The position numbers and the translations under genes are program-made. Positions 24,724-47,469 of a stretch of 50,698 nt of DNA are shown piece after piece; position 1 is the stretch's first letter; every line of letters begins with the position of its first letter. Below the pieces are notes generated by a model that was not told where the DNA came from, searched no databases, and saw only the letters and a program-made list of their open reading frames with translations. The DNA comes from a virus: positions 1 to 50,698 of IMG/VR virus record IMGVR_UViG_3300008113_005242. One strand, written 5' to 3'.

Positions 24724-26135
24724 TGGCAAGTAAAATAGATTTTTATCCTAGTGTTAAAGCCGCATTGGATCAAGTGGGTCCAGGAATGTGTCTTGCTAAG
24801 TGGAATCAAGTGACTATTCACTTGGCCACAGGCCATACACATAGTTGCCATCATCCTAACACACACAAGATTCCACTGCAAGAAATTGCCGCAGATCCTA
24901 GTGCATTACACAACACTGTCTTTAAGAAACAGCAACGTCAACGTATGCTTGACGGCGAACGTCCCGAAGAATGTGGATATTGCTGGAATGTAGAAGACAA
25001 TGTCAAAGAATCAAACATTTTCAGTGATCGTGTTGCCAAGAGTGCTGAAACTTGGAGTCAAAATTTAGACGAAGTGTTGTCTACTGGTGCAGGAAACTTT
25101 AATCCAACTTACATGGAAGTAAGTTTCAGCAACGTCTGTAATTTTAAATGCTCTTATTGTTCTCCAGAAGTATCCAGTAAATGGATGGAAGAAATTGAAC
25201 AGCACGGTGCTTACCCAACTAGTAACAAGTTTAATAACATTGATTGGTTAAAGAGCATTGACAAGATGCCTATACCACACAAGGACTACAATCCTTATGT
25301 TAATGCGTTTTGGCATTGGTGGCCTGAACTATATAAGACACTAAAAGTATTCCGTATCACAGGCGGAGAACCTCTGTTAAGCAAAGATACGTTTAAAGTT
25401 TTAGACTACATTATAGAAAACCCTCGACCAGAACTTGAATTAATGATCAACAGTAATCTTTGTATACCAGATGAACTGTTTAAAAAGTTTATAGAAAAAA
25501 TGAAACGTATTCAAGGCGAAGGCATGATCAAAGACTTTACCTTGTTTACCAGTTGTGAAGCACACGGAAAACGTGCCGAGTACATTAGACACGGATTAGA
25601 TTATGTTAAATGGTTAGAAAACTGTTCTACCTTCTTGGAGCAAGTACCAAATAGTAGACTTGGATTAATGAGTACCTATAATATTTTTAGTGTTACAAGT
25701 TACATGCCTTTTATGAAAGATTTACTGGCATTGAATAGCACTTTTAATCATTACCAGAATCGTGTACACCCATTAATTTTTGATATTCCATACTTGCGTT
25801 ATCCAGAACACTTGAGTATGACTATTCTTACTCCTGATTATTTAAAACAAGTAGAGGAGCAGGTGACTTTCATGTATCAAAATAGACAAACTGCTAACTG
25901 GCAACCACTTGCTGGCAATGGCTTTTACGATTGGGAAGTAGAAAAATTGCAACGTGTTTATCATCTTTTGGAAAGCACATTCAAAGTTGAGGAGCACCTA
26001 CAGCAGAGTACTGTAAATAAACGCAAGGACTTTGTGAGGTTTGTTGACGAGCATGATCGTCGTAGAGGCACAAACTTTTTGGAAACGTTTCCAGAAATGT
26101 CCGAGTTCTACCATATGTGTAAAGCATTGTTATGA
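24723..26135 (+). CDS. Radical SAM protein (470 aa)
   Basis: A radical SAM core with the cluster-binding CNFKCSYC (C139, C143, C146) and the SAM-binding ITGGEPLL near residue 212. The N-terminal region carries a Cys/His set (SCHHPNTH near residue 40 and ECGYCW near 80) that may bind a second cluster or metal, as in 'twitch' or SPASM-type enzymes. Such proteins are common in marine phages but their substrate is not known. The start is set by AGGAGA at 24711-24716 and a 1-base overlap with the upstream gene. Sitting between transferases, it could modify a sugar or a peptide; the sequence does not tell which. Confidence 0.8.
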   Translation: MASKIDFYPSVKAALDQVGPGMCLAKWNQVTIHLATGHTHSCHHPNTHKIPLQEIAADPSALHNTVFKKQQRQRMLDGERPEECGYCWNVEDNVKESNIFSDRVAKSAETWSQNLDEVLSTGAGNFNPTYMEVSFSNVCNFKCSYCSPEVSSKWMEEIEQHGAYPTSNKFNNIDWLKSIDKMPIPHKDYNPYVNAFWHWWPELYKTLKVFRITGGEPLLSKDTFKVLDYIIENPRPELELMINSNLCIPDELFKKFIEKMKRIQGEGMIKDFTLFTSCEAHGKRAEYIRHGLDYVKWLENCSTFLEQVPNSRLGLMSTYNIFSVTSYMPFMKDLLALNSTFNHYQNRVHPLIFDIPYLRYPEHLSMTILTPDYLKQVEEQVTFMYQNRQTANWQPLAGNGFYDWEVEKLQRVYHLLESTFKVEEHLQQSTVNKRKDFVRFVDEHDRRRGTNFLETFPEMSEFYHMCKALL

Positions 26136-26566
26136 AATATATCAGCCACCGAGGAAACTTAACAGGAGTAGATCCTAGCAGAGAAAATAGACCAGACTAT
26201 TTAATAGAAGCCATCGCTGCCGACTTTGACGTCGAAGTCGATGTCTGGTATATTGACGGAAAGATAATGTTAGGGCACGATGCTCCTACCTACAACGTTG
26301 CTTTAAATTTTATTAAGAATGATAGATTTTGGTGTCATGCTAAAAATGCAGAAGCATTAGAATTAATGTTGGCTAATAACGTACATTGTTTTTGGCATGA
26401 AAACGACCAACGTGTACTAACCAGCCAAGGATATGTTTGGACCTACCCATACAAACAAATTATTGACAACGCAGTTGTTGTCATTTTAGATAAGGAACTT
26501 GATTATGCCTATGTCTCACGAGCAATTGCAGTATGTGGCGACTATGTTCAATCCTGGCGTCAATAA
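26132..26566 (+). CDS. Glycerophosphodiester phosphodiesterase-like protein (144 aa)
   Basis: Starts with ISHRGN, followed by FDVEVDVWY and MLGHDAPT: the His-Arg, Glu-x-Asp and His-Asp pattern of the GDPD TIM-barrel active site. At 144 residues it is much shorter than normal GDPD enzymes (about 220-250), but the end (YAYVSRAIAVCGDYV) matches the end of the short forms found in phages, so it is probably complete. Family members cleave glycerol or polyol phosphodiesters, including those in teichoic-acid-like polymers. Here a role in trimming or remodelling a surface polymer is plausible but unproven. It overlaps the genes on both sides. Confidence 0.6.
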   Translation: MKYISHRGNLTGVDPSRENRPDYLIEAIAADFDVEVDVWYIDGKIMLGHDAPTYNVALNFIKNDRFWCHAKNAEALELMLANNVHCFWHENDQRVLTSQGYVWTYPYKQIIDNAVVVILDKELDYAYVSRAIAVCGDYVQSWRQ

Positions 26567-27317: not shown

Positions 27318-28038
27318 AGTTGCAATATGCATCAGCGGTCAACTTCGTACTGGCATTCTTGGACACGATGTTTTTCGTAGATTTTTTGGCAGTTTAGGTA
27401 ACTATGACGTTTTCTATCATACCTGGACGTTGAAGCCGGACGATAGTTTGAAATTACAGTCCCTGTATAATCCAATAAGATTTGTTGAAGAGCCTCCTAT
27501 TGATGTAGTCGAAGTTGGTAATTTTGGCAGTATGCTTTATAGCATAATGATGGCTAATGAATTAAAGAAACAACACGAGATTGAAAATAATTTTAGATAT
27601 GATCTTGTTATTAAGACTAGATTTGATTTAATTTTTCACGAACATGCAAGATTTCCATTAACACCAGTGCTTCCAAGAACAATATATAGTGCCGGTGGCA
27701 ATGTAGGTATTAACAATACAGACTATGAGCATCATGGTATCAGCGATTTAATTTTTTGGAGTGATAGTCAAAGCATGGATATTGCATCCAACACTTTTAG
27801 ATATTACAAGTACACAGCATTATATAATGATATCTTTCTTAAAGAAGGTGTTAAGATGGATGTCAGCGACTATTATTTAAGTCCTGGCACAATGATATAT
27901 CAAAAGACAATAGAAAAAAATATTGCACATATTAGATGGGTCCAAGGCATTAATGAAATACCTTGGAGAGAAGATGTTGCGCACTTAGACCCAACACAAG
28001 ATTACGATAAAATAAGAGATAGATATGCCAAATTTTAA
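27304..28038 (+). CDS. Tandem paralogue of the preceding glycosyltransferase-like protein (244 aa), TTG start
   Basis: Shares VAICISGQLRTG, then LKKQHEIENNFRYDLVIKTRFD with its neighbour, including the acidic pair expected for donor-metal binding. There is no ATG near the conserved start. A TTG at 27304 sits 6 bases after a perfect AGGAGG (27292-27297), which makes it the best start and leaves a 14-base overlap with the upstream gene. Tandem duplication followed by divergence is likely. Donor and acceptor are unknown. Confidence 0.6.
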   Translation: MKSGKVAICISGQLRTGILGHDVFRRFFGSLGNYDVFYHTWTLKPDDSLKLQSLYNPIRFVEEPPIDVVEVGNFGSMLYSIMMANELKKQHEIENNFRYDLVIKTRFDLIFHEHARFPLTPVLPRTIYSAGGNVGINNTDYEHHGISDLIFWSDSQSMDIASNTFRYYKYTALYNDIFLKEGVKMDVSDYYLSPGTMIYQKTIEKNIAHIRWVQGINEIPWREDVAHLDPTQDYDKIRDRYAKF

Positions 28039-28843
28039 AAGATTAGTTGTCAGCGGAGATAGTTGGACTTACGGTAGTGAAATACGTGATCCTAAACTAC
28101 CAGAGAGTGTTAAAGATTGGGACGAACCAAATGATAGTTATCGCTTGCCGAAAATTTGGCCTACAAAGTTGGGCAATCATATTGGTGTGGATGATGTTGT
28201 AAATCTAAGTTACCCTGCTGCCAGCAATGATAGAATTGTTAGAAATCTTGTAGGGTGGCTTACACAAGAATACCTTGCCCCTAAACGAGATACCAGTGAA
28301 CTTTTTGTTGTTGTGGGATTTACTAGTCCTGAACGTAAAGATTTTTACTACAGAAACATTAATAACAAATTTGAACATTTTTGGTACACGTTATGGCCAA
28401 TGTGGAAGCATCGCTATCCCCAAGAGCCGTTAAATGAATTTGCTGATCTATATGCCGCATATATGTGGAATCCTGAAGAGTATGTGCATAGATATCTTCA
28501 GCAAGTATTTTATTTGCAAACATTGTTTAATAACTACGGCATTAAACACTTATTTTTCCAAGCATTTTATCAGCGTAACGATATGCACATTCGTCAGTGG
28601 ACTGACGATCCTTACAATAGACACTATCAAGGCCAGCCTGACGAGATGGTATGGAACATGATTGATTCTACTCGCTTTATGCACAAGGATGATAAAATTC
28701 ACAGTTTCCACAATTATATTGTTAATAAAGATACTAGTCCTGGACAAAAAGACAGTATTCTAAATATGCATCCTAGTGAACTAGGACATACTTGGTGGGC
28801 CGACCATATGTATGAGTACGGCAAGGAAAATAAACTATGGTAA
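28025..28843 (+). CDS. SGNH-hydrolase-like protein (272 aa)
   Basis: Block I of SGNH/GDSL hydrolases is present as VVSGDSWTYGSE (nucleophile Ser in GDSW). The block III Asn is in AASNDRIVRN. The C-terminal HPSELGHTWWADHM supplies the His of the triad, with HPS in the place of the more usual DxxH. These enzymes remove or move acyl groups on sugars and lipids. It is cytoplasmic by sequence (no signal peptide). It is the first of three consecutive genes of this type. An acetyl-transfer or de-acetylation role in the glycan pathway is plausible. Confidence 0.65.
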   Translation: MPNFKRLVVSGDSWTYGSEIRDPKLPESVKDWDEPNDSYRLPKIWPTKLGNHIGVDDVVNLSYPAASNDRIVRNLVGWLTQEYLAPKRDTSELFVVVGFTSPERKDFYYRNINNKFEHFWYTLWPMWKHRYPQEPLNEFADLYAAYMWNPEEYVHRYLQQVFYLQTLFNNYGIKHLFFQAFYQRNDMHIRQWTDDPYNRHYQGQPDEMVWNMIDSTRFMHKDDKIHSFHNYIVNKDTSPGQKDSILNMHPSELGHTWWADHMYEYGKENKLW

Positions 28844-29613
28844 CAGAAGTCGCAATCTGCGGAGATAGTTTTGCTTGTGGATCTGGTATAGATACAAAAT
28901 ATTGCTTTGAAAGAAGTTTTGGAGCATTAGTTGCCGACTCGTTGGATGCATCTTATAAGATTTATGCACGTAGTGGTTGCTGTAACTATATTATCTATTT
29001 GCAAGTTCAAAAAGTAATAGAAGATTATAAACATAAAGACAAACCTTTAGTATTAATATCAACTACTAACCATAGCAGGTTTACATTTCCGTCTGATCAT
29101 GTTACCAAGTCGTATAATAACTATACATTAGAAGATGTTGAATATGATTTGCATGAACCCTATTGTGACAGGGAAGGTTGGCACCGCAGGGATATACCTT
29201 TCAAACCTAGTAAGACACCTAAATTAATAAGTGAGACTATTAGTAATTTCCTTCATTTTGCTTCAGGGGACGGTCCTAATCTTGCATACCTATTTAAAGA
29301 TGTTGATACAAAATTTGCGGCTATAAAAACATTCTATGAAGAATTGTACGACGATTCGATTAAGCAAACAAATGATACTGGTCTTATTTTAATGATGCAC
29401 GTAATGTTAAAAGAAGCAGGATTTCCGCATGTTATAATGTCCCCAGATCAGCATCAAAATAGATTTATTGGCAAAGAAAACTTCTTACAAAATGACTGGG
29501 GAGTTTATTCTCGCAAGTATCCCGATAAAGGTAACAGCGGGCACTGTGACGAGCGAGGGCATGTCGAAGTAGCAGAAAAAATAATCCACCATATTGAAAG
29601 AATTGTATCGTGA
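28837..29613 (+). CDS. SGNH-hydrolase-like protein, divergent (258 aa)
   Basis: Starts with VAICGDSFACGSGID, a GDSF block I with the Ser nucleophile. The C-terminus has NSGHCDERGHVEVAEKI, consistent with a DxxGH block V. The middle is unlike the flanking SGNH genes and contains ISTTNHSRFTF. It overlaps the upstream gene by 7 bases and the next by 4. Likely an esterase or acyltransferase working on the same product as its neighbours; the substrate cannot be deduced. Confidence 0.6.
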   Translation: MVTEVAICGDSFACGSGIDTKYCFERSFGALVADSLDASYKIYARSGCCNYIIYLQVQKVIEDYKHKDKPLVLISTTNHSRFTFPSDHVTKSYNNYTLEDVEYDLHEPYCDREGWHRRDIPFKPSKTPKLISETISNFLHFASGDGPNLAYLFKDVDTKFAAIKTFYEELYDDSIKQTNDTGLILMMHVMLKEAGFPHVIMSPDQHQNRFIGKENFLQNDWGVYSRKYPDKGNSGHCDERGHVEVAEKIIHHIERIVS

Positions 29614-30296
29614 AATATCTATATGCTAACGGAGATAGTTGGACACACGGCGATGAGATTCCTGATCGCAGTGATATGAATTCTGCCTCAACTCGTTATT
29701 ACAATACATGGCCATGGTTCCTCAGCCAAAATTTAAACATTCCAGTATGTGTAAATGATGCACAAGGCGGCGCCAGTAATGCAAGAATATTTAGAAGGAC
29801 CAACGACTTCATTAATAATTGGATTGGCCAAGGTAAAGATTCTAAAGATCTATTCATATGCATAGGGTGGACCAGTCCTGAACGTTCAGAAGTAAGTAGC
29901 GGCCAAGGCATTTATAGTGTAACAGTACAGCATTGTCTTAAATTACATAACTTACCAGTTGATGAAAAATCTTTAAAAAAATACCACGAAGCATTTTATG
30001 AAAATTACACCGACAGTTATGGAGAACATATCACTGCAATGTATATGATTAATCTGAGAACGCTCTGTAAAGGGCTGGGAATCAAGTATTATGATTTTGT
30101 TGCAGTAGGAGAACCCCCGTATCTATGGCAAGAAATAATTAAGAAAAAGTGGAATTTAGAAATAGAAGACATGTACTTGAAATCTTCATGGTTAGAACAA
30201 GTATGGAAAAATAATTGGCCAATTTATCAGTATAAGCATCCGACTATCGAAACGCACAAAATTTGGGCAGATGAACTTGCAAAGGAAATCAAATGA
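29610..30296 (+). CDS. SGNH-hydrolase-like protein (228 aa), paralogue of the gene at 28025
   Basis: Opens with YANGDSWTHGDEIPD (block I), has GGASNARIFRRT (block III Asn) and ends with YKHPTIETHKIWADEL (His block). It shares GDSWTYG/THG, the SN-x-RI motif and an almost identical 'GWTSPER' / 'GFTSPER' phrase with the gene at 28025, so the two are paralogues separated by a more distant member. It overlaps the next gene by 4 bases. Predicted cytoplasmic ester chemistry. Confidence 0.65.
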   Translation: MKYLYANGDSWTHGDEIPDRSDMNSASTRYYNTWPWFLSQNLNIPVCVNDAQGGASNARIFRRTNDFINNWIGQGKDSKDLFICIGWTSPERSEVSSGQGIYSVTVQHCLKLHNLPVDEKSLKKYHEAFYENYTDSYGEHITAMYMINLRTLCKGLGIKYYDFVAVGEPPYLWQEIIKKKWNLEIEDMYLKSSWLEQVWKNNWPIYQYKHPTIETHKIWADELAKEIK

Positions 30297-31015
30297 ATAT
30301 CATAATGGGACTATGTGGCGATGGTAGTCGTTTTAAAAATGTGGGTGTATCGTTGCCTAAGTTTTTAATGATATATAACGGCGCTCCTATGATTTATCAT
30401 GCAGTTGAAACTATCAAGATACCGGGAAAAATACATTTTGTTGTTAGAGAAGATCAATTATTAGAAAACAAACATTTAGAAAAATTGCTTCTTGGTCTCG
30501 GAGATGAAATTATAGTTTCAAAAGGAAGAACTCGAGGTGCTGCCGAAAGTTTATTGTTGGCAAAAAACTATATCAAAGATTTAAACGCTCCCATGCTAAG
30601 TGCTAATTGTGATCAATATTTGTCATGGAATCCGTTTAATTTAACAGATCAAATGCAACGAGAACCTGATGTAAATTTTATTGTTACCTACAAAGAAACA
30701 AGTCCAAAATGTAGTTACGTTAAGGAGCAAGCCGGATTCGTAGTAGAAGTACGGGAAAAACGGGTAATTAGTAATGATGCAACAATAGGATTTTATCATT
30801 GGGCACATACTCGTGACTTTTTTCAAGACGCCGAACAAATGATAGCAGAAGATCATAAAGAAAATGGCGAGTACTATGTTGCACCTGTTTATAATTATTC
30901 TATACAACGTGGCTTAAAAGTTAAAAAATATGCCATTGATAATGCTGAGTTTTGGCCAGTAGGTACACCAGACGACTTTATGCATTTTACCGGCAACACT
31001 GCATTTTTTGATTAA
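30293..31015 (+). CDS. Sugar nucleotidyltransferase-like protein (240 aa)
   Basis: The start MNIIMGLCGDGSRFKNVG and LPKFLMIYNGAPMI match the nucleotide-binding loop and PK-x-L motif of NTP-transferase (RmlA/GlmU type) enzymes. SANCDQYLSWN near residue 102 supplies the metal-binding Asp. FWPVGTPDDF near the C-terminus is the usual family ending. Such enzymes make NDP-sugars or NDP-cyclitols from 1-phosphates. Immediately upstream of a cupin, an RLP, a kinase and a sedoheptulose-phosphate cyclase-like gene, it is the natural activating step of that cassette, though the substrate is inferred. Confidence 0.75.
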   Translation: MNIIMGLCGDGSRFKNVGVSLPKFLMIYNGAPMIYHAVETIKIPGKIHFVVREDQLLENKHLEKLLLGLGDEIIVSKGRTRGAAESLLLAKNYIKDLNAPMLSANCDQYLSWNPFNLTDQMQREPDVNFIVTYKETSPKCSYVKEQAGFVVEVREKRVISNDATIGFYHWAHTRDFFQDAEQMIAEDHKENGEYYVAPVYNYSIQRGLKVKKYAIDNAEFWPVGTPDDFMHFTGNTAFFD

Positions 31016-31016
31016 T

Positions 31017-31349
31017 ATGAAACACGCACACATTAAAGATTTTGTTAAAGGATGGTTCGTAGGAAACTTCGAACCAAGTTTGCTAAAAGCAGACTTTGAA
31101 GTAGGTGTTGCAAAACACAAAGCGGGTGAATTTCACCAAGACCATTTTCACAAGAAAGCCATTGAGATTAATGTTGTTCTAGAGGGTAGAATGACCATCA
31201 ACGGTGAAGAGTTTGGCCCTGGAGACATTTTTGTATTACACCCATATGAGGTAAGCCAAGCCGAATTTATTACTGATGTCACTGTGGTCATTGTAAGAGA
31301 TCGCAGTGATCCTTCGGACAAATATGAATTCGATATCATTGACAAGTAA
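31017..31349 (+). CDS. Single-domain cupin (110 aa)
   Basis: The cupin core is visible: HQDHFHKKAIEINVVLEG, with the metal-binding His pair and Glu of cupin motif 1 (G-x5-H-x-H-x-E pattern), then EEFGPGDIFVLHPYEV (motif 2, with His). Start chosen at the ATG at 31017 rather than a TTG at 31008. The gene lies 1 base after the nucleotidyltransferase. Small cupins of this sort often are sugar isomerases, epimerases or lyases, or bind sugars. Its last codons overlap the -35 box of the next gene's promoter. Confidence 0.75.
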   Translation: MKHAHIKDFVKGWFVGNFEPSLLKADFEVGVAKHKAGEFHQDHFHKKAIEINVVLEGRMTINGEEFGPGDIFVLHPYEVSQAEFITDVTVVIVRDRSDPSDKYEFDIIDK

Positions 31350-31367
31350 GTTTTAGGATAGTATAAT
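31339..31367 (+). promoter_or_regulatory. Consensus sigma-70 promoter for the RuBisCO-like gene
   Basis: TTGACA at 31339-31344, a 17-base spacer and TATAAT at 31362-31367: again a full consensus match. The -35 box runs into the last codons of the cupin gene. The expected transcription start falls at about the ATG at 31374, so the message would be leaderless or nearly so. No Shine-Dalgarno sequence is available at a normal distance (AGGA lies 16 bases before the ATG). Confidence 0.75.
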
Positions 31368-31373
31368 TAAAAG

Positions 31374-32485
31374 ATGAAACTCTATTATAACGAAGTGCCT
31401 TCGGGGCACTATACTGCTACATTTTATATTGAAAGTAGTACCAATCTTGCAGACGCTTGCGAGGGAGTAGCCATTGGTCAGACTATCGGCAATCCAACAG
31501 TTCGCATACCAAAATGGGAAACTGAGGACCTAGTAGAAAAATATAGTGCTAAAATTATTGGAACAAGACAAGATTTAGAAACAAAAAAAGCAGGAACAGT
31601 TGTAATTGCTTTTCCTTCAGAAAATATTAACTGGGACAAAGACGGATTCAGTCACTTGCTTTGTGTACTCCTAGGTGGACAATGTGACATAGATACTATT
31701 ACAAAATGTCATGTATTAGATATTGACGACTGCGGATTGATTCCTAAACTTGCACCTAAGTTTGGATTATCCGGTATTAGAGAATTTACAGGACAATATA
31801 ACAAGCCGTTACTAGGATGTATTCTTAAACCTAAAATTGGTTTAAATCCAACTGATTATGCAAGTATTGTTAAAGAGATGGTCGATGGTGGCGCTGATAT
31901 TATCAAGGAAGATGAAATCCTTGGAAGCCCACTATTCTGTAGTTTAGAAGACCGTCTTGAAATTGTTCGTAGTGTAATTGGCGATAAGAAAATTATATAT
32001 CTTACTGCCATTAACGGTGACGCCAACACTGTGCTTGAAAAAGCACACACAGTCAGTGCCGCAGGTATCAATGGAGTTCACGTTAATGTGTGGAGTGGAT
32101 TAGGCACGTATCGTGCAGTCCGTAAACAGAACTTGCCTGTTGCTATTCACTATCAAAAGAGTGGTGACAAAGCATTTACTCACGAGGGTAATGCTTATAG
32201 ATTTAGTTGGTAGGTGTTGATACAATTCATGCAGGCATGTGGGGCTCCTATCTAAGTGACGATCCCGTTGAACTTAAAAGACTTATGGACATGTTGACAA
32301 GTCATAATGTTGTGCCTGCACTAAGTTGCGGAATGAATGCTACGCTGATTCCTAAAGTAACAGAAAAGTTTGGTGTTGATTATCTAGCCAACGTAGGTAG
32401 TGCATGTCATAGTCATCCTGATGGTGTATATGCAGGTGTTAAAAAATTAAGAGATGCAATTGATGCAACAGGTAATCACGCTTAA
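31374..32485 (+). pseudogene. RuBisCO-like protein (form IV type), reading frame broken
   Basis: Part one (31374-32213, 279 residues) has LLGCILKPKIGL and GGADIIKEDEI. K152 and K154 match RuBisCO K175 and K177, and K178, D180 and E181 match the carbamylated Lys and two metal ligands (K201, D203, E204). The IH-x of H294 is kept (H259) but the adjacent Arg is Tyr. Part two continues in the -1 frame from about 32207: LVGVDTIHAGMWGSY (H327 equivalent kept, loop-6 Lys absent), then VVPALSCGMN and a C-terminal HPDG. Loss of loop-6 Lys and of the N-terminal Glu (E60) rules out carboxylation. RLPs act as enolases, isomerases or decarboxylases of sugar phosphates. About 7-8 residues are missing at the junction, where TTGG is shared by both flanks. 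It may be a real pseudogene or an assembly loss. Confidence 0.85.
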
Positions 32486-33428
32486 AGGCGGCAGTCTTAA
32501 TTCGACTTCATTACACATAGATGGAGATAAGAAATTTGTAAGAAAACTTATCTCCACTAGTGCTGATAGAGAATATGGATATGTACGCTGGTACAGTCAG
32601 TTAAAAAAATTACAAAGATTCAATGCACTAGTTCCAGGGTGTGTTCCCCAAGTGTATGATGCCGGTATTACAGAAGACGGAGCATACTTCGATATTGAAT
32701 ATATTGATGCAAAAGATATTAAAACATTATTTAAAGAAAATGCACTAACGCGATATCAGACAGAAAGGATGCATAAATCTTTGTGGTTTACTTTTGATAG
32801 ATTACACAGCCACAAGTACGCACCAAACGTTAGTAGTCTTAAACTTTACTTCCAGGAAGAAGTTCTGCAAAAACTCAATGATGCTAGACAGTTTCTAGAG
32901 TTTGAGCAGTTTTATAATTTAGATGTATATGTACATCAAGGCGAAACTTTTAGCGGAATTAAAAATAAAATTGAACAATTTTCTAAATTGTTTGATGAAG
33001 TAATTTCCTCCGAATGCTATGTACACGGTAATCCTACATTGGAAAATATTCTATACAATCCAGATACTGATAAAATCGTGTTCATAGATTTGTACGAAGA
33101 AGGCATAGTCGACAGTCAGTTTATGGATTACAGCCAAGTACTTCAATGTAGCAATAGTTTGTATGGTTTGCTCAATGACGGAGTTCTTAAAGTTAACGGC
33201 AATATTACAGATTTTTCTATAGATCCAGTCCCTGAAAATCTCATATATTTTAATGAGTTATTCAATGACGAATTAAAATACAGATATCCTGCTCACTATA
33301 AATTGGTAAAACTATTTGAAGCAACTCAATTTTTCCGTATGTTGCCTTTTAAATGCCATGCAGATAACATAGAAGCAGCCAAGTTTTTTTACGCCCATGC
33401 TTGCAGTCTAGTAAATAGATTACTATGA
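32463..33428 (+). CDS. Aminoglycoside-phosphotransferase/choline-kinase-like protein (321 aa)
   Basis: The C-lobe has YVHGNPTLENILYN followed by IVFIDLYEEG, matching the APH catalytic loop H-G-D-x4-N and the metal-binding Asp. The catalytic Asp is replaced by Asn (N190), while N195 and D209 are kept. The N-lobe has a plausible nucleotide-binding beta sheet and an invariant Lys (KKFVRKLIST). Start chosen at ATG 32463, overlapping the RLP frame by 23 bases; an ATG at 32454 is possible. In this cassette it would phosphorylate a sugar or cyclitol before nucleotidyl transfer. The Asp-to-Asn change may reduce or alter activity. Confidence 0.65.
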   Translation: MQQVITLKGGSLNSTSLHIDGDKKFVRKLISTSADREYGYVRWYSQLKKLQRFNALVPGCVPQVYDAGITEDGAYFDIEYIDAKDIKTLFKENALTRYQTERMHKSLWFTFDRLHSHKYAPNVSSLKLYFQEEVLQKLNDARQFLEFEQFYNLDVYVHQGETFSGIKNKIEQFSKLFDEVISSECYVHGNPTLENILYNPDTDKIVFIDLYEEGIVDSQFMDYSQVLQCSNSLYGLLNDGVLKVNGNITDFSIDPVPENLIYFNELFNDELKYRYPAHYKLVKLFEATQFFRMLPFKCHADNIEAAKFFYAHACSLVNRLL

Positions 33429-34489
33429 CATGGCGTGTAAAAACTTCTCTTCCTATAGAATTTGAAATCAACAAAGTTCCTGATGCCCTAGACTTTTGGG
33501 TAATTCCAGGTCAGCGTCGTATTGCAATCGTTGATCAAATAGTGTATAATCTATATAAGGAAAGAATTCCCAAAGGTGTAGAATTATTCATTATTGAATC
33601 TACAGAAGCCGAAAAACATTGGGCAAATGCAGAACGTGTATTGGCATTTTTTGAAGAGAAAAATGTCTTACGTAGAAGTGAACCTATTATTGCAATAGGC
33701 GGTGGTGTACTATTAGATTTAGTTGGTTTTTGTTGTAGCATTTATCGCAGAGGTATTCCGTATGTTAGAATCCCTACAACATTGTTAGCCATAGTCGACG
33801 CCAGTGTAGGTGCTAAGACTAGCATTAATCATTTTGGTCGTAGAAATCGTATTGGTAGTTTTTACCCTCCTGTGCAAACTCTTATTGATACGAGTTTTAT
33901 AAAAACACAGGACCGTAGGGAAATTTCCAACGGTATGGCAGAAATATTAAAGTTGGCAATTGTATTAGATCATCGTCTTTTTGAAATGATGGAACTGGCT
34001 CCTCATCAGTTGTTAACACAGAAATTTCAAAATCTTGCTTTAGCAGATCAAATTATTGATCGTGCAATCACTGGTATGACGCAAGAGTTAAATGATAATC
34101 TGTGGGAACGAAATTTAAAACGACCAGTAGACTTTGGACATAGTTTTAGTCCAGTAGTTGAAATGAAGAATGTGCCCAACTTATTACACGGTGAAGCAGT
34201 TATTTTGGATTGTTTGTTGAGCAGTTGCATAAGCAATCTTAGAGGATATCTGTCCAACGAAGAGTTAGAACGTATTTTTACAGTAATTAAAAATTGTGGA
34301 CTTGCTACAGAACACGAAGATTTTTATAACGTTGATTTATTATGGAGTGGTTTAAAAGACGTAATGAATCATAGAAATGATAATCAGTATTTGCCTATAC
34401 CTACTAGTATAGGACGTTGTGAAATTATCAACGATGTTACTTATAGCGAGATTCAACAAGCAACACAGAGATTAAAGAGTTTACAATGA
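33425..34489 (+). CDS. Sedoheptulose-7-phosphate cyclase-like enzyme (EEVS-like, DHQ synthase superfamily, 354 aa)
   Basis: Belongs to the 3-dehydroquinate synthase superfamily: IAIGGGVLLDLVGF, YRRGIPYVRIPTTLL, DASVGAKTSINHFG and RRNRIGSFYPP. Zinc ligands are in place (E173 in GMAEILK, H239 in DFGHSFSP, H255 in LLHGEAV). Three features separate it from true DHQ synthase and match sugar-phosphate cyclases such as 2-epi-5-epi-valiolone synthase: GGGVLLD instead of GGGVxGD, YRRG instead of YQRG, and GH-S/T-FSP-x-x-E, where Pro (P243) replaces the second catalytic His. Such enzymes make C7 cyclitols from sedoheptulose 7-phosphate. It overlaps kinase and dehydrogenase genes by 4 bases each, so they are translated together. 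The exact product cannot be read from motifs. Confidence 0.8.
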   Translation: MTWRVKTSLPIEFEINKVPDALDFWVIPGQRRIAIVDQIVYNLYKERIPKGVELFIIESTEAEKHWANAERVLAFFEEKNVLRRSEPIIAIGGGVLLDLVGFCCSIYRRGIPYVRIPTTLLAIVDASVGAKTSINHFGRRNRIGSFYPPVQTLIDTSFIKTQDRREISNGMAEILKLAIVLDHRLFEMMELAPHQLLTQKFQNLALADQIIDRAITGMTQELNDNLWERNLKRPVDFGHSFSPVVEMKNVPNLLHGEAVILDCLLSSCISNLRGYLSNEELERIFTVIKNCGLATEHEDFYNVDLLWSGLKDVMNHRNDNQYLPIPTSIGRCEIINDVTYSEIQQATQRLKSLQ

Positions 34490-35160
34490 AAACAGTAGTT
34501 ATTACAGGAACAAGTAGAGGACTAGGCCTATCCATTGCTAAGAAGTTTATCAATGCAGGATGGCATGTTATTGGGTTGGGTAGAACGGCCCCTGACAAAT
34601 TAGAAAATTATACGCATTACACAGCAGACATTGCGAATATGAGTCAAGTTTTTTCTACGTTCGATACCATACGTAAAACTAAAACTAATATTGATTTGTT
34701 AGTTAATAACAGCGCGGCATTCCATGCCGGGTCGTTTGACACACTGGAGTACATTGATATCTGCACAATAATAGATACTAATGTTAAAGGTACAATGTAT
34801 GTGACCATGGAAGCATTAAAATCCATGACCGCGGGTAGTAGAGTTATTTTTATTAATAGTGTCGCTGGCATTAGAGAAATACAAAATCAAAGTTTGTATT
34901 GTGCTAGTAAAGCCGCATTGAAAAGTTTTGCTGGCATTATTGGACAAGAACTACGCAGTAGAAAAATCAAAGTTTCTAGCATTCATCCCGGCGGCATCAA
35001 TACCACATTGTGGAATGAACAAAATCCGTATCCATGTGGTCGTGCAGAAGATGCACTAGATCCAAACATAGTTGCTGATGCAGTATTTCATATTGCAGAA
35101 GTTCCACACAATACAGAGATTAAAACAATTACAATGTTCCCAGAAGTGGAGTGGCACTAA
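34486..35160 (+). CDS. Short-chain dehydrogenase/reductase (224 aa)
   Basis: Classical SDR: TGTSRGLG at residues 7-14 binds the dinucleotide, NNSA is in the middle, and S125, Y138 and K142 (YCASK) form the catalytic set. The C-terminal substrate loop contains HPGGINTTLWNE. Length is normal for the family. It overlaps the cyclase gene by 4 bases and the next gene by 1, and would be the natural keto-reduction step after cyclisation. Cofactor preference cannot be decided, though Arg in TSRGLG slightly favours NADP. Confidence 0.85.
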   Translation: MKTVVITGTSRGLGLSIAKKFINAGWHVIGLGRTAPDKLENYTHYTADIANMSQVFSTFDTIRKTKTNIDLLVNNSAAFHAGSFDTLEYIDICTIIDTNVKGTMYVTMEALKSMTAGSRVIFINSVAGIREIQNQSLYCASKAALKSFAGIIGQELRSRKIKVSSIHPGGINTTLWNEQNPYPCGRAEDALDPNIVADAVFHIAEVPHNTEIKTITMFPEVEWH

Positions 35161-35855
35161 TGTACGATATTGTTTTTATTAGTTACGGCGAACCAAATGC
35201 CGAAGCAAATTGGGAACGTCTTAAAAAGCGTTTTCCTTTGGCTAAACGTGTTAAGGATGTTACAGGTATTCATCAAGCACACATTGCCGCGGCAAAAAAA
35301 GCATTTACCAAGATGTTTTGGGTAGTAGATGGCGATGCAGAAATATTAGACGATTTTAACTTTGATCATGAAGTCAGTGAATACGATTTAGATGTTGTGC
35401 ATGTATGGCGCAGTCGTAATCCTATTAACGATTTAGAATACGGCTATGGTGGCGTCAAATTATTGCCACGTAAACTAACATTAGATATGGACATTACTAA
35501 ACCAGACATGACTACTAGTATTAGTACAAAGTTCAAAGCCATGGAACAAGTATCTAATATTACTGCATTTAATACTGATCCATTTAACACCTGGAAATCA
35601 GCATTTAGAGAATGTGTAAAACTTGCCTCTAAAGTAATTGACGGTCAAGTAGATGAAGAAACAGAAGTACGATTAATGACTTGGTGTACCTATGCTGACA
35701 AACGACAGTTTAATGACTGGGCATTCCTTGGCGCGGAAGATGGCAAAATGTATGGAATGATGAAAGCAGGTGATATAGAAGCCTTAAGTAAAATAAATGA
35801 TTTTAAGTGGTTGCATGAATTCTTTTCAAGATATCCCGTTTCAAAAAATAGTTAA
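35160..35855 (+). CDS. Glycosyltransferase-like protein with DGD motif (231 aa)
   Basis: Same family as the gene at 23830: YDIVFISYGEPNAEANWE, KRVKDVTGIHQAH, WVVDGDAEILDD and YGYGGVKLLPRKL occur in the same order. The ATG at 35160 shares a base with the TAA of the dehydrogenase gene; an in-frame ATG at 35151 would lie in the upstream gene. About 65 residues shorter than its paralogue because the C-terminal tail is absent. Probable sugar transferase of the cassette. Confidence 0.65.
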   Translation: MYDIVFISYGEPNAEANWERLKKRFPLAKRVKDVTGIHQAHIAAAKKAFTKMFWVVDGDAEILDDFNFDHEVSEYDLDVVHVWRSRNPINDLEYGYGGVKLLPRKLTLDMDITKPDMTTSISTKFKAMEQVSNITAFNTDPFNTWKSAFRECVKLASKVIDGQVDEETEVRLMTWCTYADKRQFNDWAFLGAEDGKMYGMMKAGDIEALSKINDFKWLHEFFSRYPVSKNS

Positions 35856-36681
35856 GTTCGGACAGCGAACTATGCTGGATCGTCCCTTATTCAACACTAG
35901 TTGGATACTGGGACGTTTTTGTAATTACAACTGTAATCAGTTCCATTGGTCGTTCAGCGGAGGCGAACCTACCGCTTATAAACAGTTACTAGATCTAGTA
36001 AAACATCTAGACGAAACAGAAAGTAGTTATCAGAGTATTCATATGACTACTAATCTAAGTCCTGGATCGAAATGGTGGAACACCTGGTGTACTAATACAT
36101 CACTGTTACAACGTAGAAGTATTACAGCATCTTTCCATGATGAGTTTGCCAAGGAGCAAGAGTTTGGAGACAAGTGTTTACAGTTAATGTATGAACTTGT
36201 TCATGTAACAGTTAATCAAGTTATGGTTCCTGAAAAGTTTTATGAACTATACGAGAGAATGGAACGTTTTCATAAACGTGGTATTAACGTAACACTAAAA
36301 CCGCAAAGCGACCCTACTGCTAGTGGTATTGTAGATGGCTACACTGAAGATATGATTCACAAGATGCAAACAGGATTTCCACAAAGATCCAACGGCGAAG
36401 ACATTTATCAAATTGCGTTATACGATGATAAAAAGGAATACTTATTTGATCAAGCAGAACGCTTTAATGCGTTTGGATTTAATAAATTTACAGATTGGAC
36501 TTGCAATGCAGGATATCAAAGTGTTATAATAAGAGGTACAGAAGTTAAACGAAGTTATAGTTGTCATGATCAATCATTGGGCAATATATTAACAGGGTTT
36601 GATTTGTTTGATACTCCTAAAAAATGTATTACTCCTAGTTGTGTTAGCAGTGCAGATAGTAAAATACCAAAAAGAAAATGA
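35815..36681 (+). CDS. Radical SAM protein lacking part of its cluster motif (288 aa)
   Basis: Starts FQDIPFQKIVKFGQRTML, then LFNTSWILGRFCNYNC (C36, C40) and runs straight into NQFHWSFSGGEPTAYK. In intact members CNYNC is followed by S-Y-C (third cluster Cys) and then about 35-45 residues before FHWSFSGGEPT. Here the third Cys is replaced by F43 and that stretch is gone in frame. A Cys-rich ending is kept (FTDWTCNAGY, YSCHD, KKCITPSCVSS). As written the protein could not bind the radical SAM cluster normally. The start overlaps the previous gene by 41 bases. Loss may be real or an assembly artefact. Confidence 0.7.
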   Translation: MNSFQDIPFQKIVKFGQRTMLDRPLFNTSWILGRFCNYNCNQFHWSFSGGEPTAYKQLLDLVKHLDETESSYQSIHMTTNLSPGSKWWNTWCTNTSLLQRRSITASFHDEFAKEQEFGDKCLQLMYELVHVTVNQVMVPEKFYELYERMERFHKRGINVTLKPQSDPTASGIVDGYTEDMIHKMQTGFPQRSNGEDIYQIALYDDKKEYLFDQAERFNAFGFNKFTDWTCNAGYQSVIIRGTEVKRSYSCHDQSLGNILTGFDLFDTPKKCITPSCVSSADSKIPKRK

Positions 36682-37921: not shown

Positions 37922-38844
37922 TGAAAATTTTAATGACAGGTACAAGTGGCTTTATAGGACAACACCTAGAGCCATTATTAAAAGAGCAACACGAAATTTA
38001 TTCTTTAAAAAGTGACTTGCTAGATTTTGACGCAGTTACTAAAGAAGTGTTGGACTTTCAGCCTGACATTATTGTACACCTCGCCGCACGTACAGAAGTT
38101 GAAAAGAGTTTTTACGAACAAACAACTTTTAGTCAAATTAATTATGTGGGTAGTGTAAATTTGATCGAAGCCGCATCTAAGGTTCCTACACTGAAAAACT
38201 TTGTGTTTGCCAGCACAATGGAAGTCTACGGTTGGCAACCCATCAGTGATGTCGTACAGAGTGGACGAGTTCCTGAAGTATTTGAAGCATTCGATGAAAA
38301 CACATATCCAAATCCTAATGCACCTTACGCTGTGGCCAAGTATGGAGTTGAGAAATATTTAGAATATGCACATCGTTGTTTAGATTTGCCCTTTACTGCT
38401 ATTAGACAAACCAACTGTTACGGCCGCAAAGATAATGACTTCTTTGTTACTGAACAGTTTATCATGCAGATGCTGACTAATCCACATGAAGTAGAATTTG
38501 GTTATGCAGAGCCTTATCGTAACTTTATCTTTATTGACGACATGTTGAGTGCATGGACTACAATTATTAATAATCCCGCACTGGTAAACACAGGAAAGAT
38601 TTTGACCATCGGGCCAGACAATCCAATTAAGATTAAACACTATGCAGATATGATTGCAACGAAACTTAATTGGACAGGTAAAATTCATTGGCATCGTAAA
38701 CTACATCGTCCTGGAGAAATCTATTGGTTAAACAGTAATCACAACTTGCTTACCAAGTTAACAGGGTGGATACCTCAAGTAACTTTAAGTGACGGATTAG
38801 ATAAAACTATTGAAATTTGGAGAGAGAAATTAAATGTTAAATGA
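37921..38844 (+). CDS. NAD-dependent epimerase/dehydratase, extended SDR (307 aa)
   Basis: TGTSGFIGQHL at residues 7-17 is the extended-SDR dinucleotide motif. HLAARTEVEKSF, FASTMEVYG and Y136-x3-K140 (YAVAK) complete the catalytic core. RQTNCYGRKDND and YRNFIFIDDML are standard for nucleotide-sugar epimerases and dehydratases. Length is normal. It is the clearest nucleotide-sugar enzyme of the cluster besides the nucleotidyltransferase. Likely substrate is the NDP-sugar used by the neighbouring transferases. The next gene overlaps by 11 bases. Confidence 0.85.
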   Translation: MKILMTGTSGFIGQHLEPLLKEQHEIYSLKSDLLDFDAVTKEVLDFQPDIIVHLAARTEVEKSFYEQTTFSQINYVGSVNLIEAASKVPTLKNFVFASTMEVYGWQPISDVVQSGRVPEVFEAFDENTYPNPNAPYAVAKYGVEKYLEYAHRCLDLPFTAIRQTNCYGRKDNDFFVTEQFIMQMLTNPHEVEFGYAEPYRNFIFIDDMLSAWTTIINNPALVNTGKILTIGPDNPIKIKHYADMIATKLNWTGKIHWHRKLHRPGEIYWLNSNHNLLTKLTGWIPQVTLSDGLDKTIEIWREKLNVK

Positions 38845-39955
38845 ATTACAAGTACACTGGGACAACAAAGTTGTTGACTACGATTTAGAAAAGTATAACT
38901 GGCCTGCGTGGGCACTGGGTGTAATTCAAGAAGTCGCTCCGCAAATTAAAGAATTAGAAACAATGCACGAGTTTTTAACTCCTGCAGAAATTGTCAGAGT
39001 AGGACAGCATGTACAAAATGCATGTAGTCGTAGAGATTTTATGGAACGCTTTGATGAGTTTGCCGAAAGCATTGTGCCACAGCGTATTGGCAATAAGCGA
39101 TATATGATTCAACGTCAAGGAACGCTACGAGTTGTCATTCCTAACCAAGCAAAGGTTGGACGTAGGCTTGCATTTCATCAAGGTATTTTCGTAGGCAATG
39201 GACGTGGATGCAGAACTATCTGGACGCCATTTACTCGTGCAGAAAAGACCAACACTATGTGGATGTTGGATCTAGCAGTTAGTCGTGAGATTACTAAAAA
39301 GGTGCTTGCTGAAAAGTGGAGCATGGAAAAGTTTGAAGAAGAAAGTTTAAAACATGCGTGGCCAGTGACATTAGATCCAGGGCAAAGTCATTTATTCTTT
39401 CAAGAACACATTCACGGTAACGTAAATAATGATGAAGGCTACACCCGTGTTAGTATGGACATGCGTATTCTAATTGAAGGTGAAGAATGGGGACGTAGAC
39501 TACCAGGAGGTTTTATGCGTTTACCAGGCGACTACGAAGTTACAGAAGTAATGGATTATACAGGTAAGAGTTTTATTACTTACGCCGGGTGGAATAGTAA
39601 ATTCAGCAAAGACATTCCGTTACCCATGCAACGTGCTATCATCGAACCCTACTGCCAAAAGAATAAGATTTCTTACACAAGTTACGAATTTGAAAACGAA
39701 CACCTTGACTGGCAACCGGGACTTGAGTATTATATTAAAGAACGTCCAGATGGTATTGTGTTATGTAGTATGTATTGTCTAACAGATGATGTTCAACGCC
39801 GCAGTGAAATATTACAACTAGCATTAGACTTAGGTGTTGAACTACACTTTGCCAACGAACTAACAAGTTTAAAAACCAAAAAAGATTTAGAAAAGATCGA
39901 AACTTATCTAAACTTTGCAGTGCCTAAAAAAGGTCTTTACGTCTGGGAAGAATAA
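38834..39955 (+). CDS. Fusion of a 2OG-Fe(II)-oxygenase-like domain and a 'sporadic carbohydrate cluster' domain (373 aa)
   Basis: Residues 1 to about 265 resemble the 2OG-Fe(II) oxygenase-like protein of bacterial 'sporadic carbohydrate clusters': FHQGIFVGNGRGCRTIW (H115), FFQEHIHGNVNN (H192, H194), then GYTRVSMDMRI. The C-terminal 100 residues (KISYTSYEFE, EYYIKERPDGIVLCSMYCL, GVELHFANELTSLK) resemble the small LIC12192-type protein of those clusters, which is normally a separate gene. Finding both in one chain is unusual. The family is linked to surface polysaccharide loci in bacteria such as Leptospira; the reaction is not known to me. Confidence 0.65.
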   Translation: MLNELQVHWDNKVVDYDLEKYNWPAWALGVIQEVAPQIKELETMHEFLTPAEIVRVGQHVQNACSRRDFMERFDEFAESIVPQRIGNKRYMIQRQGTLRVVIPNQAKVGRRLAFHQGIFVGNGRGCRTIWTPFTRAEKTNTMWMLDLAVSREITKKVLAEKWSMEKFEEESLKHAWPVTLDPGQSHLFFQEHIHGNVNNDEGYTRVSMDMRILIEGEEWGRRLPGGFMRLPGDYEVTEVMDYTGKSFITYAGWNSKFSKDIPLPMQRAIIEPYCQKNKISYTSYEFENEHLDWQPGLEYYIKERPDGIVLCSMYCLTDDVQRRSEILQLALDLGVELHFANELTSLKTKKDLEKIETYLNFAVPKKGLYVWEE

Positions 39956-40464
39956 TGAGAGGACATATAACACCTCATTGGGCTAGAGATCAGTTGCCTT
40001 TTGTTAATTACGAAAGTCAGGAAAATATACAACGTGGGTTCTCTCCCATTGATTATGGAGATGTTTACTCACAAGTAGAAGTATCTATGAATATACACAA
40101 AGGTCTACACTCTTTATTTGACATTTTTAAATTAGAAGATTCTTTTAATTGGTTGTCTAATATGATGTATGCTGTGCATTGTATGAAACCCGGGTGTGCA
40201 TTACCAGAACATTCAGACAAGTATCCTTACTTTATTAAAACAACTGGTGCTGATATCAATTCTATACAGCGTATAATTATATTCCTTGAAGATAAAAAAC
40301 CTGGACACAGATTTACACTTAATGGTGTTGATTTAGATAACTGGGTTGCTGGAGATTGGATTAGTTGGATCGGCACTGATAGTCACGGTGCTTACAATGA
40401 AGGTACTGAGAATCGTTACACTTTACAGATTACTGGAATTATTCGCGGATTAAATCCAAAGTAA
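39955..40464 (+). CDS. 2OG-Fe(II)/aspartyl-hydroxylase-like oxygenase (169 aa)
   Basis: Double-stranded beta-helix oxygenase pattern: CMKPGCALPEHSDKYPYF gives the metal-binding His-x-Asp (H86, D88), GTDSHGAYNEGTENRY gives the distal His (H144) and the 2-oxoglutarate-binding Arg. The short length is typical of phage versions. It is the last + strand gene of the large cluster. Its final 26 bases overlap the end of the convergent amidinotransferase gene, with no terminator between. The substrate may be a peptide, sugar or small metabolite. Confidence 0.7.
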   Translation: MRGHITPHWARDQLPFVNYESQENIQRGFSPIDYGDVYSQVEVSMNIHKGLHSLFDIFKLEDSFNWLSNMMYAVHCMKPGCALPEHSDKYPYFIKTTGADINSIQRIIIFLEDKKPGHRFTLNGVDLDNWVAGDWISWIGTDSHGAYNEGTENRYTLQITGIIRGLNPK

Positions 40465-47137: not shown

Positions 47138-47469
47138 TGGATATCTATCACATCTGGGCAGACAAACAGGGTGACATCAGCGACCTGGACTGGGTCAACA
47201 ACATGAAATCTTTTCTTGATCACTTAGTTGATGAAGACAAGATGGTAAGTTATAGAATTACTAGATGTAAAATGGGATTTCGTAGTATGGATATTCCTGA
47301 GTGGCATATTATGATGGAGTTCAATAATATGGCACAGTTAGAAACAGCATTCCAACGTGTAGCACCGTTAGAAGGTGAACTCGAAGACAAACACCGTAGT
47401 TTTAATCAATTTGTGTCGGGAAACATCCAACACGCATATTACAGGGATTGGCCAGATGGACAAAATTAA
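47137..47469 (+). CDS. Small DUF6614-like protein (110 aa)
   Basis: MDIYHIWADKQGDISDLDWV, then YRITRCKMGFRSMDIPEWHI and HAYYRDWPD resemble the small DUF6614 family, probably a ferredoxin-like dimeric alpha/beta barrel. The function is not known. The ATG at 47137 shares a base with the previous stop (TAATG); an earlier in-frame ATG at 47119 lies within that gene. It overlaps the amidinotransferase-like gene by 14 bases, so the three are probably co-translated. Confidence 0.6.
   Translation: MDIYHIWADKQGDISDLDWVNNMKSFLDHLVDEDKMVSYRITRCKMGFRSMDIPEWHIMMEFNNMAQLETAFQRVAPLEGELEDKHRSFNQFVSGNIQHAYYRDWPDGQN

What the first reader, a model, noticed from the sequence alone, without database searches (positions are those of the whole stretch)
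30293..35160. Candidate phage pathway to an NDP-activated cyclitol or pseudosugar
Nucleotidyltransferase, cupin, RuBisCO-like protein, kinase-like protein, sedoheptulose-phosphate cyclase-like enzyme and dehydrogenase lie in one strand-consistent run, mostly overlapping by 1-4 bases. The set covers ring closure, reduction, phosphorylation and activation, and is followed at once by a transferase. Aminotransferase and amidinotransferases elsewhere in the window would extend the chemistry.
Basis: inference. Interest (0 to 1): 0.85.

Follow-up and report, generated by a model that had tools for sequence, protein, structure and literature searches.

The report
Phage gene cassette for activated cyclitol
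This stretch of an uncultured phage genome carries a gene set that probably turns a common seven-carbon sugar phosphate into a ring-shaped sugar mimic and attaches it to a nucleotide, joined to a second, separable gene set built around a relative of the CO2-fixing enzyme RuBisCO.

Summary
The six genes are there, on one strand, in a tailed-phage fragment. The RuBisCO-like gene (RLP) is broken in this record by a 28-nt deletion; relatives carry it intact. The cyclase is not a DHQ synthase: its profile matches ValA (EEVS) at 350 bits, DDGS at 268, DHQ synthases at 187 or less, and 35 of 37 distinct viral cyclases keep the EEVS residue pair. Comparison splits the run into two modules. (1) Nucleotidyltransferase-kinase-cyclase-SDR: same order on 40 of 40 viral contigs that carry all four, 24 of them without RLP. 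(2) Nucleotidyltransferase-cupin-RLP, often with a GDPD-like gene: 63 viral contigs hold RLP without cyclase, kinase or SDR, and related sets lie in SAR11, Patescibacteria and archaeal contigs. The window merges both around one nucleotidyltransferase of the module-2 lineage. Best reading: sedoheptulose-7-P -> cyclitol ketone -> cyclitol -> cyclitol phosphate -> NDP-cyclitol, used by phage transferases; the RLP probably serves a second, unknown sugar-nucleotide route. Main weakness: the kinase family has Asn where APH kinases have their catalytic Asp.

The parts
30293..31015 (+). Nucleotidyltransferase (NTP_transferase fold), probable sugar/cyclitol-1-phosphate nucleotidyltransferase, shared by the two modules
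   Evidence: PF00483 22.4 bits; profile best PDB match 4evw NDP-sugar pyrophosphorylase 143 bits; clade-1 relatives lie in the RLP-associated NTP clade
31017..31349 (+). Small cupin, RLP-module partner, possibly isomerase or epimerase
   Evidence: phrog_24762 103.9 bits, unknown function; weak cupin matches in PDB; NTP-cupin-RLP order in 71 of 71 contigs where the three lie together
31374..32485 (+). RuBisCO-like protein (RLP) gene, broken in this record by a 28-nt deletion (ORFs 31374-32213 and 32207-32485); intact in relatives such as L002
   Evidence: PF00016 in both ORFs; deletion seen against L002-L005; model of the intact relative is RuBisCO fold, TM 0.87 to 2d69; KPK and KxDE motifs in 76 of 76 distinct long RLPs
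32454..33428 (+). APH-fold putative cyclitol kinase; Asn in place of the catalytic Asp (HGNPTLEN)
   Evidence: PF01636 28 bits; AlphaFold model pLDDT 91, best PDB fold match APH(3')-Ia, TM 0.46; HGNPTLEN in 37 of 40 distinct sequences, no match in the other 3
33425..34489 (+). Sedoheptulose-7-phosphate cyclase, EEVS-like
   Evidence: ValA 4p53 best PDB match (259 bits single sequence; 350 bits profile); EEVS residue pair kept in 35 of 37 distinct viral cyclases
34486..35160 (+). Short-chain dehydrogenase/reductase, probable reductase of the cyclitol ketone
   Evidence: PF00106 130 bits; cofactor motif and YxxxK-type motif each in 33 of 34 distinct relatives
35151..35855 (+). ORF with no confident family match, in the same cluster (F11) as ORF 23830-24723; candidate transferase
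   Evidence: no Pfam match, one sub-threshold NCBIfam match; cluster F11; follows the cassette in clade-1 relatives
26132..26566 (+). Short GDPD-like protein, member of the RLP module by co-occurrence, placed apart in this window
   Evidence: profile matches the N-terminal part of GDPD enzymes, 27 bits; present in 50 of 63 RLP contigs without cyclase

Best explanation
The run is two sugar-nucleotide modules merged around one nucleotidyltransferase. The cyclitol module (nucleotidyltransferase, APH-fold kinase, EEVS-like cyclase, SDR) takes host sedoheptulose 7-phosphate. The cyclase closes it to a C7-cyclitol ketone such as 2-epi-5-epi-valiolone; the SDR reduces the ketone; the kinase phosphorylates the new hydroxyl; the nucleotidyltransferase makes an NDP-cyclitol that phage transferases put on a virion or host-surface glycan. 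The other module (nucleotidyltransferase, cupin, RuBisCO-like protein, GDPD-like protein) makes a second, unknown NDP-sugar, with the RLP acting as an enolising isomerase of a sugar phosphate. Shown here: identities at family level, gene order, separability, EEVS-type residues, folds. Inferred: every substrate, step order, nucleotide and final acceptor.
For: Cyclase profile: ValA 350 bits, DDGS 268, best DHQ synthase 187. EEVS pair Asp/His in 35 of 37 distinct viral cyclases; the two exceptions, L177 and L178, join the DHQ synthases in the tree. Same order and strand on 40 of 40 contigs with all four genes, 24 without RLP; in those 24 the NTP and kinase frames overlap. In L146 the four genes stand between phage genes: a cell-wall hydrolase upstream and, further downstream, a DNA ligase. 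Two nucleotidyltransferase lineages (clade-2 ones 21-23% identical to the window's; apart in the tree) go with the same kinase-cyclase-SDR trio, which argues that activation belongs to the trio. RLP module: NTP in 60, cupin in 56, GDPD in 50, kinase and SDR in 0 of 63 RLP contigs without cyclase; NTP near the RLP in 16 of 18 close cellular relatives. 0 of 20 cyclase records hold an RLP and 0 of 26 RLP-only records a cyclase; the same queries found 8 of 8 and 6 of 6 known carriers.
Against: The kinase family has Asn at the position of the APH catalytic Asp, a change that usually abolishes activity (general knowledge), so the phosphorylation step may not be as drawn. The window's nucleotidyltransferase is of the RLP lineage, so it may serve only the RLP product. 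No epimerase, dehydratase or phosphatase as in acarbose is assigned. The SDR substrate cannot be read from sequence. No phage record matches the intact RLP or the kinase, and the 14 phage records that match the cyclase are at most 33.2% identical. No transcription or product data.
Confidence: 0.58

Rival explanations
1. All six genes are one pathway: RLP and cupin act on the cyclitol or its precursor before activation.
For: 16 of the 40 contigs with all four cyclitol genes also carry the RLP, and there the RLP and cupin sit between the nucleotidyltransferase and the kinase.
Against: No RLP on 24 of 40 four-gene contigs nor in 20 of 20 whole cyclase records tested; RLP without cyclase on 63 contigs. 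Insertion of the kinase-cyclase-SDR trio beside a resident RLP module explains the order.
Confidence: 0.13
2. The kinase-like protein is not catalytic in the usual way; the cyclitol is made and reduced but activated by another route or used otherwise, and the nucleotidyltransferase serves a normal sugar.
For: Asn replaces the catalytic Asp: HGNPTLEN in 37 of 40 distinct sequences, no match to the pattern in 3; nearest fold match only TM 0.46.
Against: Other motifs are kept: F[IV]D[LP]YEE in 39 of 40, LKGGS in 34 of 40; kinase and nucleotidyltransferase frames overlap in all 24 four-gene contigs without RLP.
Confidence: 0.2
3. The cyclase is a 3-dehydroquinate synthase and the genes support the shikimate pathway.
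For: Pfam and NCBIfam name it DHQ synthase; aroB model 211 bits.
Against: 211 bits lies below the aroB cut-off of 305; ValA and DDGS outrank every DHQ synthase; Asp and His replace the residues of DHQ synthases at two sites; no other shikimate family among the window ORFs scanned with Pfam.
Confidence: 0.03
4. The cyclase uses sedoheptulose 7-phosphate but makes another ring (2-epi-valiolone or a desmethyl-4-deoxygadusol-like ring), and the end product is a different pseudosugar or a mycosporine-like compound.
For: 20 of 37 distinct viral cyclases have Val, as in DDGS, and 17 Thr, as in ValA, after the active-site Lys. Methyltransferase-like families lie in several of these clusters.
Against: Both positions that separate EEVS from DDGS carry the EEVS residues. 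No ATP-grasp match among the window ORFs scanned with Pfam; the relatives were not scanned for it.
Confidence: 0.2

Closest known systems
ValA / EEVS of validamycin and AcbC of acarbose (C7-cyclitol pathways)
   Same: Cyclase family and the two EEVS residues; pathway logic of cyclase, reductase, kinase, nucleotidyltransferase (acarbose passages in PMC9200736)
   Different: In tailed phages; four genes; APH-fold kinase with Asn; no assigned epimerase, dehydratase or phosphatase; among phage carbohydrate-type genes
AroB-related cyclase clusters TIGR04425 in cellular genomes
   Same: A DHQS-like cyclase directly beside an SDR in the 5 regions opened
   Different: Phage cyclase scores 171 bits against a 400-bit cut-off; none of the 5 regions (4 with a cyclase over the cut-off) has a match to the phage kinase
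RuBisCO-like proteins (OiaX, MtnW and other form IV)
   Same: RuBisCO fold; OiaX is the best NCBIfam match for the window's first RLP ORF (94.7 bits); KxDE and KPK kept
   Different: About 380 residues; loop-6 lysine not conserved in the alignment to form III RuBisCO; a HYQKSGDK motif in 59 of 76; linked to a nucleotidyltransferase, cupin and GDPD-like gene
AmgK-MurU type pairs (APH-fold anomeric kinase plus nucleotidyltransferase; recalled)
   Same: An APH-fold kinase paired with an NTP_transferase
   Different: Phage kinase lacks the catalytic Asp; AmgK and MurU were not compared here

Membership tests
[quoted passage not shown]
   350 bits ValA, 268 DDGS, 187 best DHQS
[quoted passage not shown] 287/366 in chain 4p53) | tested here: met
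   35 of 37 distinct viral cyclases, the window's represented by an identical relative; DDGS has Ala and Thr
[quoted passage not shown] | not tested
   The paper is not held; 14 positions of my own choice were tabulated, not that list
[quoted passage not shown]
   needs an assay
3-Dehydroquinate synthase (AroB) | Reaches the aroB equivalog cut-off | tested here: not met
   211 of 305 bits
TIGR04425 AroB-related phospholyase | Reaches the family cut-off | tested here: not met
   171 of 400 bits
NDP-C7-cyclitol pathway (validamycin/acarbose type) | Cyclase, reductase, kinase and nucleotidyltransferase encoded together | tested here: met
   same order on 40 of 40 contigs that carry all four
NDP-C7-cyclitol pathway (validamycin/acarbose type) | Kinase with intact catalytic residues | tested here: not met
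   HGNPTLEN, Asn for Asp, in 37 of 40 distinct sequences, no match to the pattern in 3
NDP-C7-cyclitol pathway (validamycin/acarbose type) | An NDP-cyclitol is made | not testable with these tools
   needs an assay
RuBisCO (carboxylase) | Loop-6 lysine | tested here: not met
   alignment to form III RuBisCO shows no lysine at the GK site
RuBisCO-like protein | RuBisCO fold with metal-site Lys, Asp, Glu | tested here: met
   TM 0.87 to 2d69; KxDE 76 of 76
OiaX (3-oxo-isoapionate-4-phosphate decarboxylase) | Reaches NF042437 cut-off | tested here: not met
   94.7 of 700 bits, from the window's N-terminal ORF alone
APH phosphotransferase | APH fold | tested here: inconclusive
   Pfam 28 bits over a 23.2 cut-off; Foldseek's seven best are APH enzymes but TM is only 0.40-0.46

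The most novel reading that the evidence does not exclude
Uncultured tailed phages encode a complete four-gene route from sedoheptulose 7-phosphate to an NDP-activated carbocyclic pseudosugar, and independently a second nucleotide-sugar route that uses a RuBisCO-fold enzyme as a sugar-phosphate isomerase; some phages have merged the two around one nucleotidyltransferase. Where an aminotransferase follows (clade 2) the product could be an aminocyclitol. Pseudosugars on virions or host surfaces would resist glycosidases of the host or of competing phages.
Probability: 0.4. Interest if true: 0.88.

Novelty: new variant of a known kind. Interest (0 to 1): 0.72.

Why it matters
Sedoheptulose-7-phosphate cyclases are known from antibiotic and sunscreen pathways of bacteria, algae and animals; a phage version tied to nucleotide activation would mean that viruses build carbocyclic sugar mimics of their own. 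The RLP module would link the RuBisCO fold to nucleotide-sugar synthesis, and it is also found in SAR11 and other cellular contigs, so it points to an undescribed surface-sugar route in abundant bacteria. I found no earlier report of either in the ten literature searches listed under Tried and rejected. Both can be tested with a handful of purified enzymes. One global survey of viral metabolic genes excluded contigs carrying LPS islands (passage in PMC11360552), which may be why such cassettes go unreported.

Tried and rejected
DHQ synthase/shikimate: rejected on bit scores, residues and tree.

Single six-gene pathway: weakened by separability.

Programmed frameshift in the RLP: rejected, since the break is a 28-nt deletion absent from all four near-identical contigs L002-L005. 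Whether it is real or an assembly fault is not settled; the window also lacks 106 nt in the radical-SAM gene, and L003, L004 and L005 show gaps of their own against the window, so faulty assembly is plausible.

A PDB search then showed a clear C-terminal match.

Cellular source of the cyclase: no match at E <= 1e-65 in 398 Pseudomonadota and 296 Bacteroidota genomes; the same query matches 6 of 6 viral carriers at E <= 1e-181. These are samples of two phyla only, and Actinomycetota, where EEVS is known, were not searched. TIGR04425 matched 313 of 349 genomes at E <= 1e-60, presumably ordinary DHQ synthases; 4 of 349 passed the cut-off.

Kinase relatives in cells: 8 of 398 genomes at E <= 0.001. 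Two loci (L179, L185) have an APH-type domain with HGD beside a nucleotidyltransferase; in the other short loci no such neighbour was seen.

Phage records: no match to the intact RLP or the kinase, none to the 15-kb region by DNA. Of the 14 records matching the cyclase (at most 33.2% identity) four are annotated, all as 3-dehydroquinate synthase, two of them on records named Salmonella enterica. The GDPD-like protein matches 16 Synechococcus phage records. In the five regions opened its direct upstream neighbour is a gene labelled HAD hydrolase (DSL-LC03, S-CAM9), a nucleotidyltransferase (B23), or a small protein labelled phosphoheptose isomerase with a sub-threshold HAD match (S-SM2, Bellamy), the last two with an aldolase before it. 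None of the proteins of these regions that I ran against the RLP profile matched it, so the GDPD link is wider than the RLP module.

Literature: searches listed no paper on a viral sugar-phosphate cyclase cassette or on an RLP beside a nucleotidyltransferase, judged from titles and abstract openings; only open-licence papers are held. Passages of PMC1821046 report new groups of 65 RuBisCO homologues in ocean data that cluster with no known form; these may include the viral RLPs, not tested. Passages only were also seen of PMC4426668, PMC5133447, PMC9200736, PMC11360552 and PMC12360287.
Full report
What the window is. The window is one 50,698-base virus record classed as a linear fragment. ORFs 14516-16789 and 16796-18649 match tail-fibre, tail-collar and virion structural families, and 18878-20167 a tail-fibre family, so it is a tailed phage. 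From 20202 to 40464 runs a same-strand series of ORFs, several with carbohydrate-type matches; the six genes lie about 10 kb downstream of the tail genes.

The six genes. Coordinates and family matches are in the parts list. The RuBisCO-like gene is broken: against L002, L003, L004 and L005 the window lacks 28 nt inside this gene, and 106 nt inside the radical-SAM gene at 35934, while the aligned stretches are otherwise about 99-100% identical; some of those contigs have gaps of their own. The intact relative has one 379-residue ORF.

The cyclase. A single-sequence search of PDB chains ranks ValA (4p53, 259 bits) over DDGS (5tpr, 197) and the best DHQ synthase (147). A profile of 14 viral cyclases gives 350, 268 and 187. 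The aroB model gives 211 of the 305 bits needed. In an alignment of 37 distinct viral cyclases with five solved ones, 35 have Asp and His at the two places where DDGS has Ala and Thr and the three DHQ synthases have Asn and Val or Ser. The two exceptions, L177 and L178, group with the DHQ synthases in a quick tree; ValA and DDGS lie on the side of the other viral cyclases. The site numbers are recalled: the passages seen of PMC4426668 say only that two fingerprint sites separate EEVS from DDGS. I conclude that the enzyme works on sedoheptulose 7-phosphate; the exact ring product is inferred.

Two modules. A scan with one cyclase found 14 viral loci, a scan with an alignment 54. An RLP scan found 93 relatives, of which 80 were kept. 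Of 54 distinct cyclase contigs, 46 carry both kinase and SDR, 4 kinase alone, 2 SDR alone and 2 neither; several are cut by contig ends. On 40 of 40 contigs holding all four genes the order and strand are the same; 24 of the 40 have no RLP. Of 63 RLP contigs without cyclase, 60 have the nucleotidyltransferase, 56 the cupin, 50 the GDPD-like gene, none the kinase or SDR. Where nucleotidyltransferase, cupin and RLP lie together their order is the same in 71 of 71. Whole-record searches found no RLP in 20 of 20 cyclase records and no cyclase in 26 of 26 RLP-only records; the same queries found 8 of 8 and 6 of 6 known carriers. Several contigs are near-copies, so the counts are not independent events. 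After thinning by RLP identity, 33 loci (the window and its excerpt L001 both included) gave NTP in 32, GDPD in 27, cupin in 26, and kinase, cyclase and SDR in 7 each.

Which nucleotidyltransferase. In a quick tree of 59 sequences the five clade-1 enzymes (with RLP and cyclase) nest inside the RLP-associated group, while nine cyclase-only phages have a separate, distant enzyme. L146 has the RLP-type enzyme but no RLP. Several long branches make the deep joins unsure. So the kinase-cyclase-SDR trio goes with two nucleotidyltransferase lineages. In L146 the four genes follow a cell-wall hydrolase gene and a small ORF and precede, with other ORFs between, a DNA ligase gene. Two ORFs further upstream on the other strand have no Pfam match, though by eye their GxLGD starts recall glycosyltransferases, so the spot is not proven free of glycan genes. 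This is the nearest thing to a minimal unit, and it is a single case. Two clade-2 contigs over 130 kb carry a terminase, while four other records tested, fragments all, do not.

The kinase. The model (pLDDT 91) has its best fold matches in APH enzymes, at low TM (0.40-0.46), and no convincing PDB sequence match. The motif reads HGNPTLEN in 37 of 40 distinct sequences, with no match to the pattern in three: Asn where active APH enzymes have Asp. This is the weakest step of the proposed route.

The RLP. The model of the intact relative (pLDDT 91) matches RuBisCO from Pyrococcus horikoshii (TM 0.87). KPK and KxDE are present in 76 of 76 distinct long sequences, HYQKSGDK in 59. The loop-6 lysine is not conserved, so CO2 fixation is unlikely; enolisation or isomerisation of a ketose phosphate is the natural guess. 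A scan of cellular genomes gave 41 loci: 18 at 36% identity or more, the other 23 at 21-26%. Of the 18, 16 have a nucleotidyltransferase close by, 12 a GDPD-like gene scoring 100 bits or more and 5 the cupin; L097 and L108, short pieces, have none. Some of those contigs may themselves be viral. In L035 and L053 the nucleotidyltransferase is fused to a HAD domain (90.9 and 86.5 bits), as in cyanophage DSL-LC03.

The wider chemistry. The window also holds a DegT aminotransferase match and an amidinotransferase (47375-48625; C-terminal match, E 9e-9). Searching that protein in 29 records gave matches in 8 of 12 clade-1, 0 of 6 clade-2 and 5 of 11 RLP-only records, most of the weaker ones confined to the C-terminus, so it does not travel with the cyclase. 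In two clade-2 phages a DegT aminotransferase (235.5 and 230.8 bits) stands two genes after the SDR, which leaves an aminocyclitol open there.

Comparison with known pathways. The acarbose route (passages of PMC9200736) runs cyclase, 7-kinase, epimerase, further redox steps, 1-kinase, 7-phosphatase, nucleotidyltransferase to GDP-valienol, then a pseudoglycosyltransferase. The phage unit keeps the logic with four genes. Cellular TIGR04425 clusters also place an SDR next to a DHQS-like cyclase, but the five regions opened show no match to the phage kinase.

Verdict. A real, conserved phage cassette whose most likely product is an NDP-cyclitol, joined in this phage to a separate RuBisCO-like module of unknown product. 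Enzymatic proof is missing for every step.

Noticed in passing
window 26132-26566: Short GDPD-like protein with HRG..EN..E.D..GHD motif; a regular companion of the RLP module, and in cyanophages next to HAD-type or nucleotidyltransferase genes without RLP.
   Followed up: partly
window 47375-48625 and 40442-41422 (minus): Amidinotransferase by its C-terminus and a probable weak relative; full-length relatives in some clade-1 and RLP-only records, none in the 6 clade-2 records tested.
   Followed up: partly
window 35797-36681: Radical-SAM gene lacks 106 nt present in near-identical relatives, close to its CNYNC motif; second private deletion in this record.
   Followed up: partly
window 38834-39955: Matches in one ORF to two 'sporadic carbohydrate cluster' families, SpoChoClust_2 (2OG-Fe(II) oxygenase, 70.7 of 150 bits) and SpoChoClust_1 (48.6 of 55 bits), both below their cut-offs. 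No paper holds that name in the library.
   Followed up: partly
window 28025-30296: Three proteins in a row upstream of the cassette, two of them matching DUF6071; the long clade-1 loci carry two or three of them.
   Followed up: no
window 92-13876: Single ORF of 4594 codons upstream of the tail-fibre genes.
   Followed up: no
L098, L099, L100, L101, L102, L104: Pelagibacter-labelled loci with two different nucleotidyltransferases flanking the RLP and a GDPD-like gene in front.
   Followed up: partly
L169 10437-11768 and L175 10445-11767: DegT-type aminotransferase two genes after the SDR in clade-2 phages; could make an aminocyclitol or serve another sugar.
   Followed up: partly
L035 4306-5676, L053 5951-7321: HAD domain fused to the nucleotidyltransferase of the RLP module.
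   Followed up: partly
L022 between cyclase and SDR: Cyclase and SDR frames are 835 nt apart here; an ORF with a weak match to the F4 family lies between (as L147).
   Followed up: no
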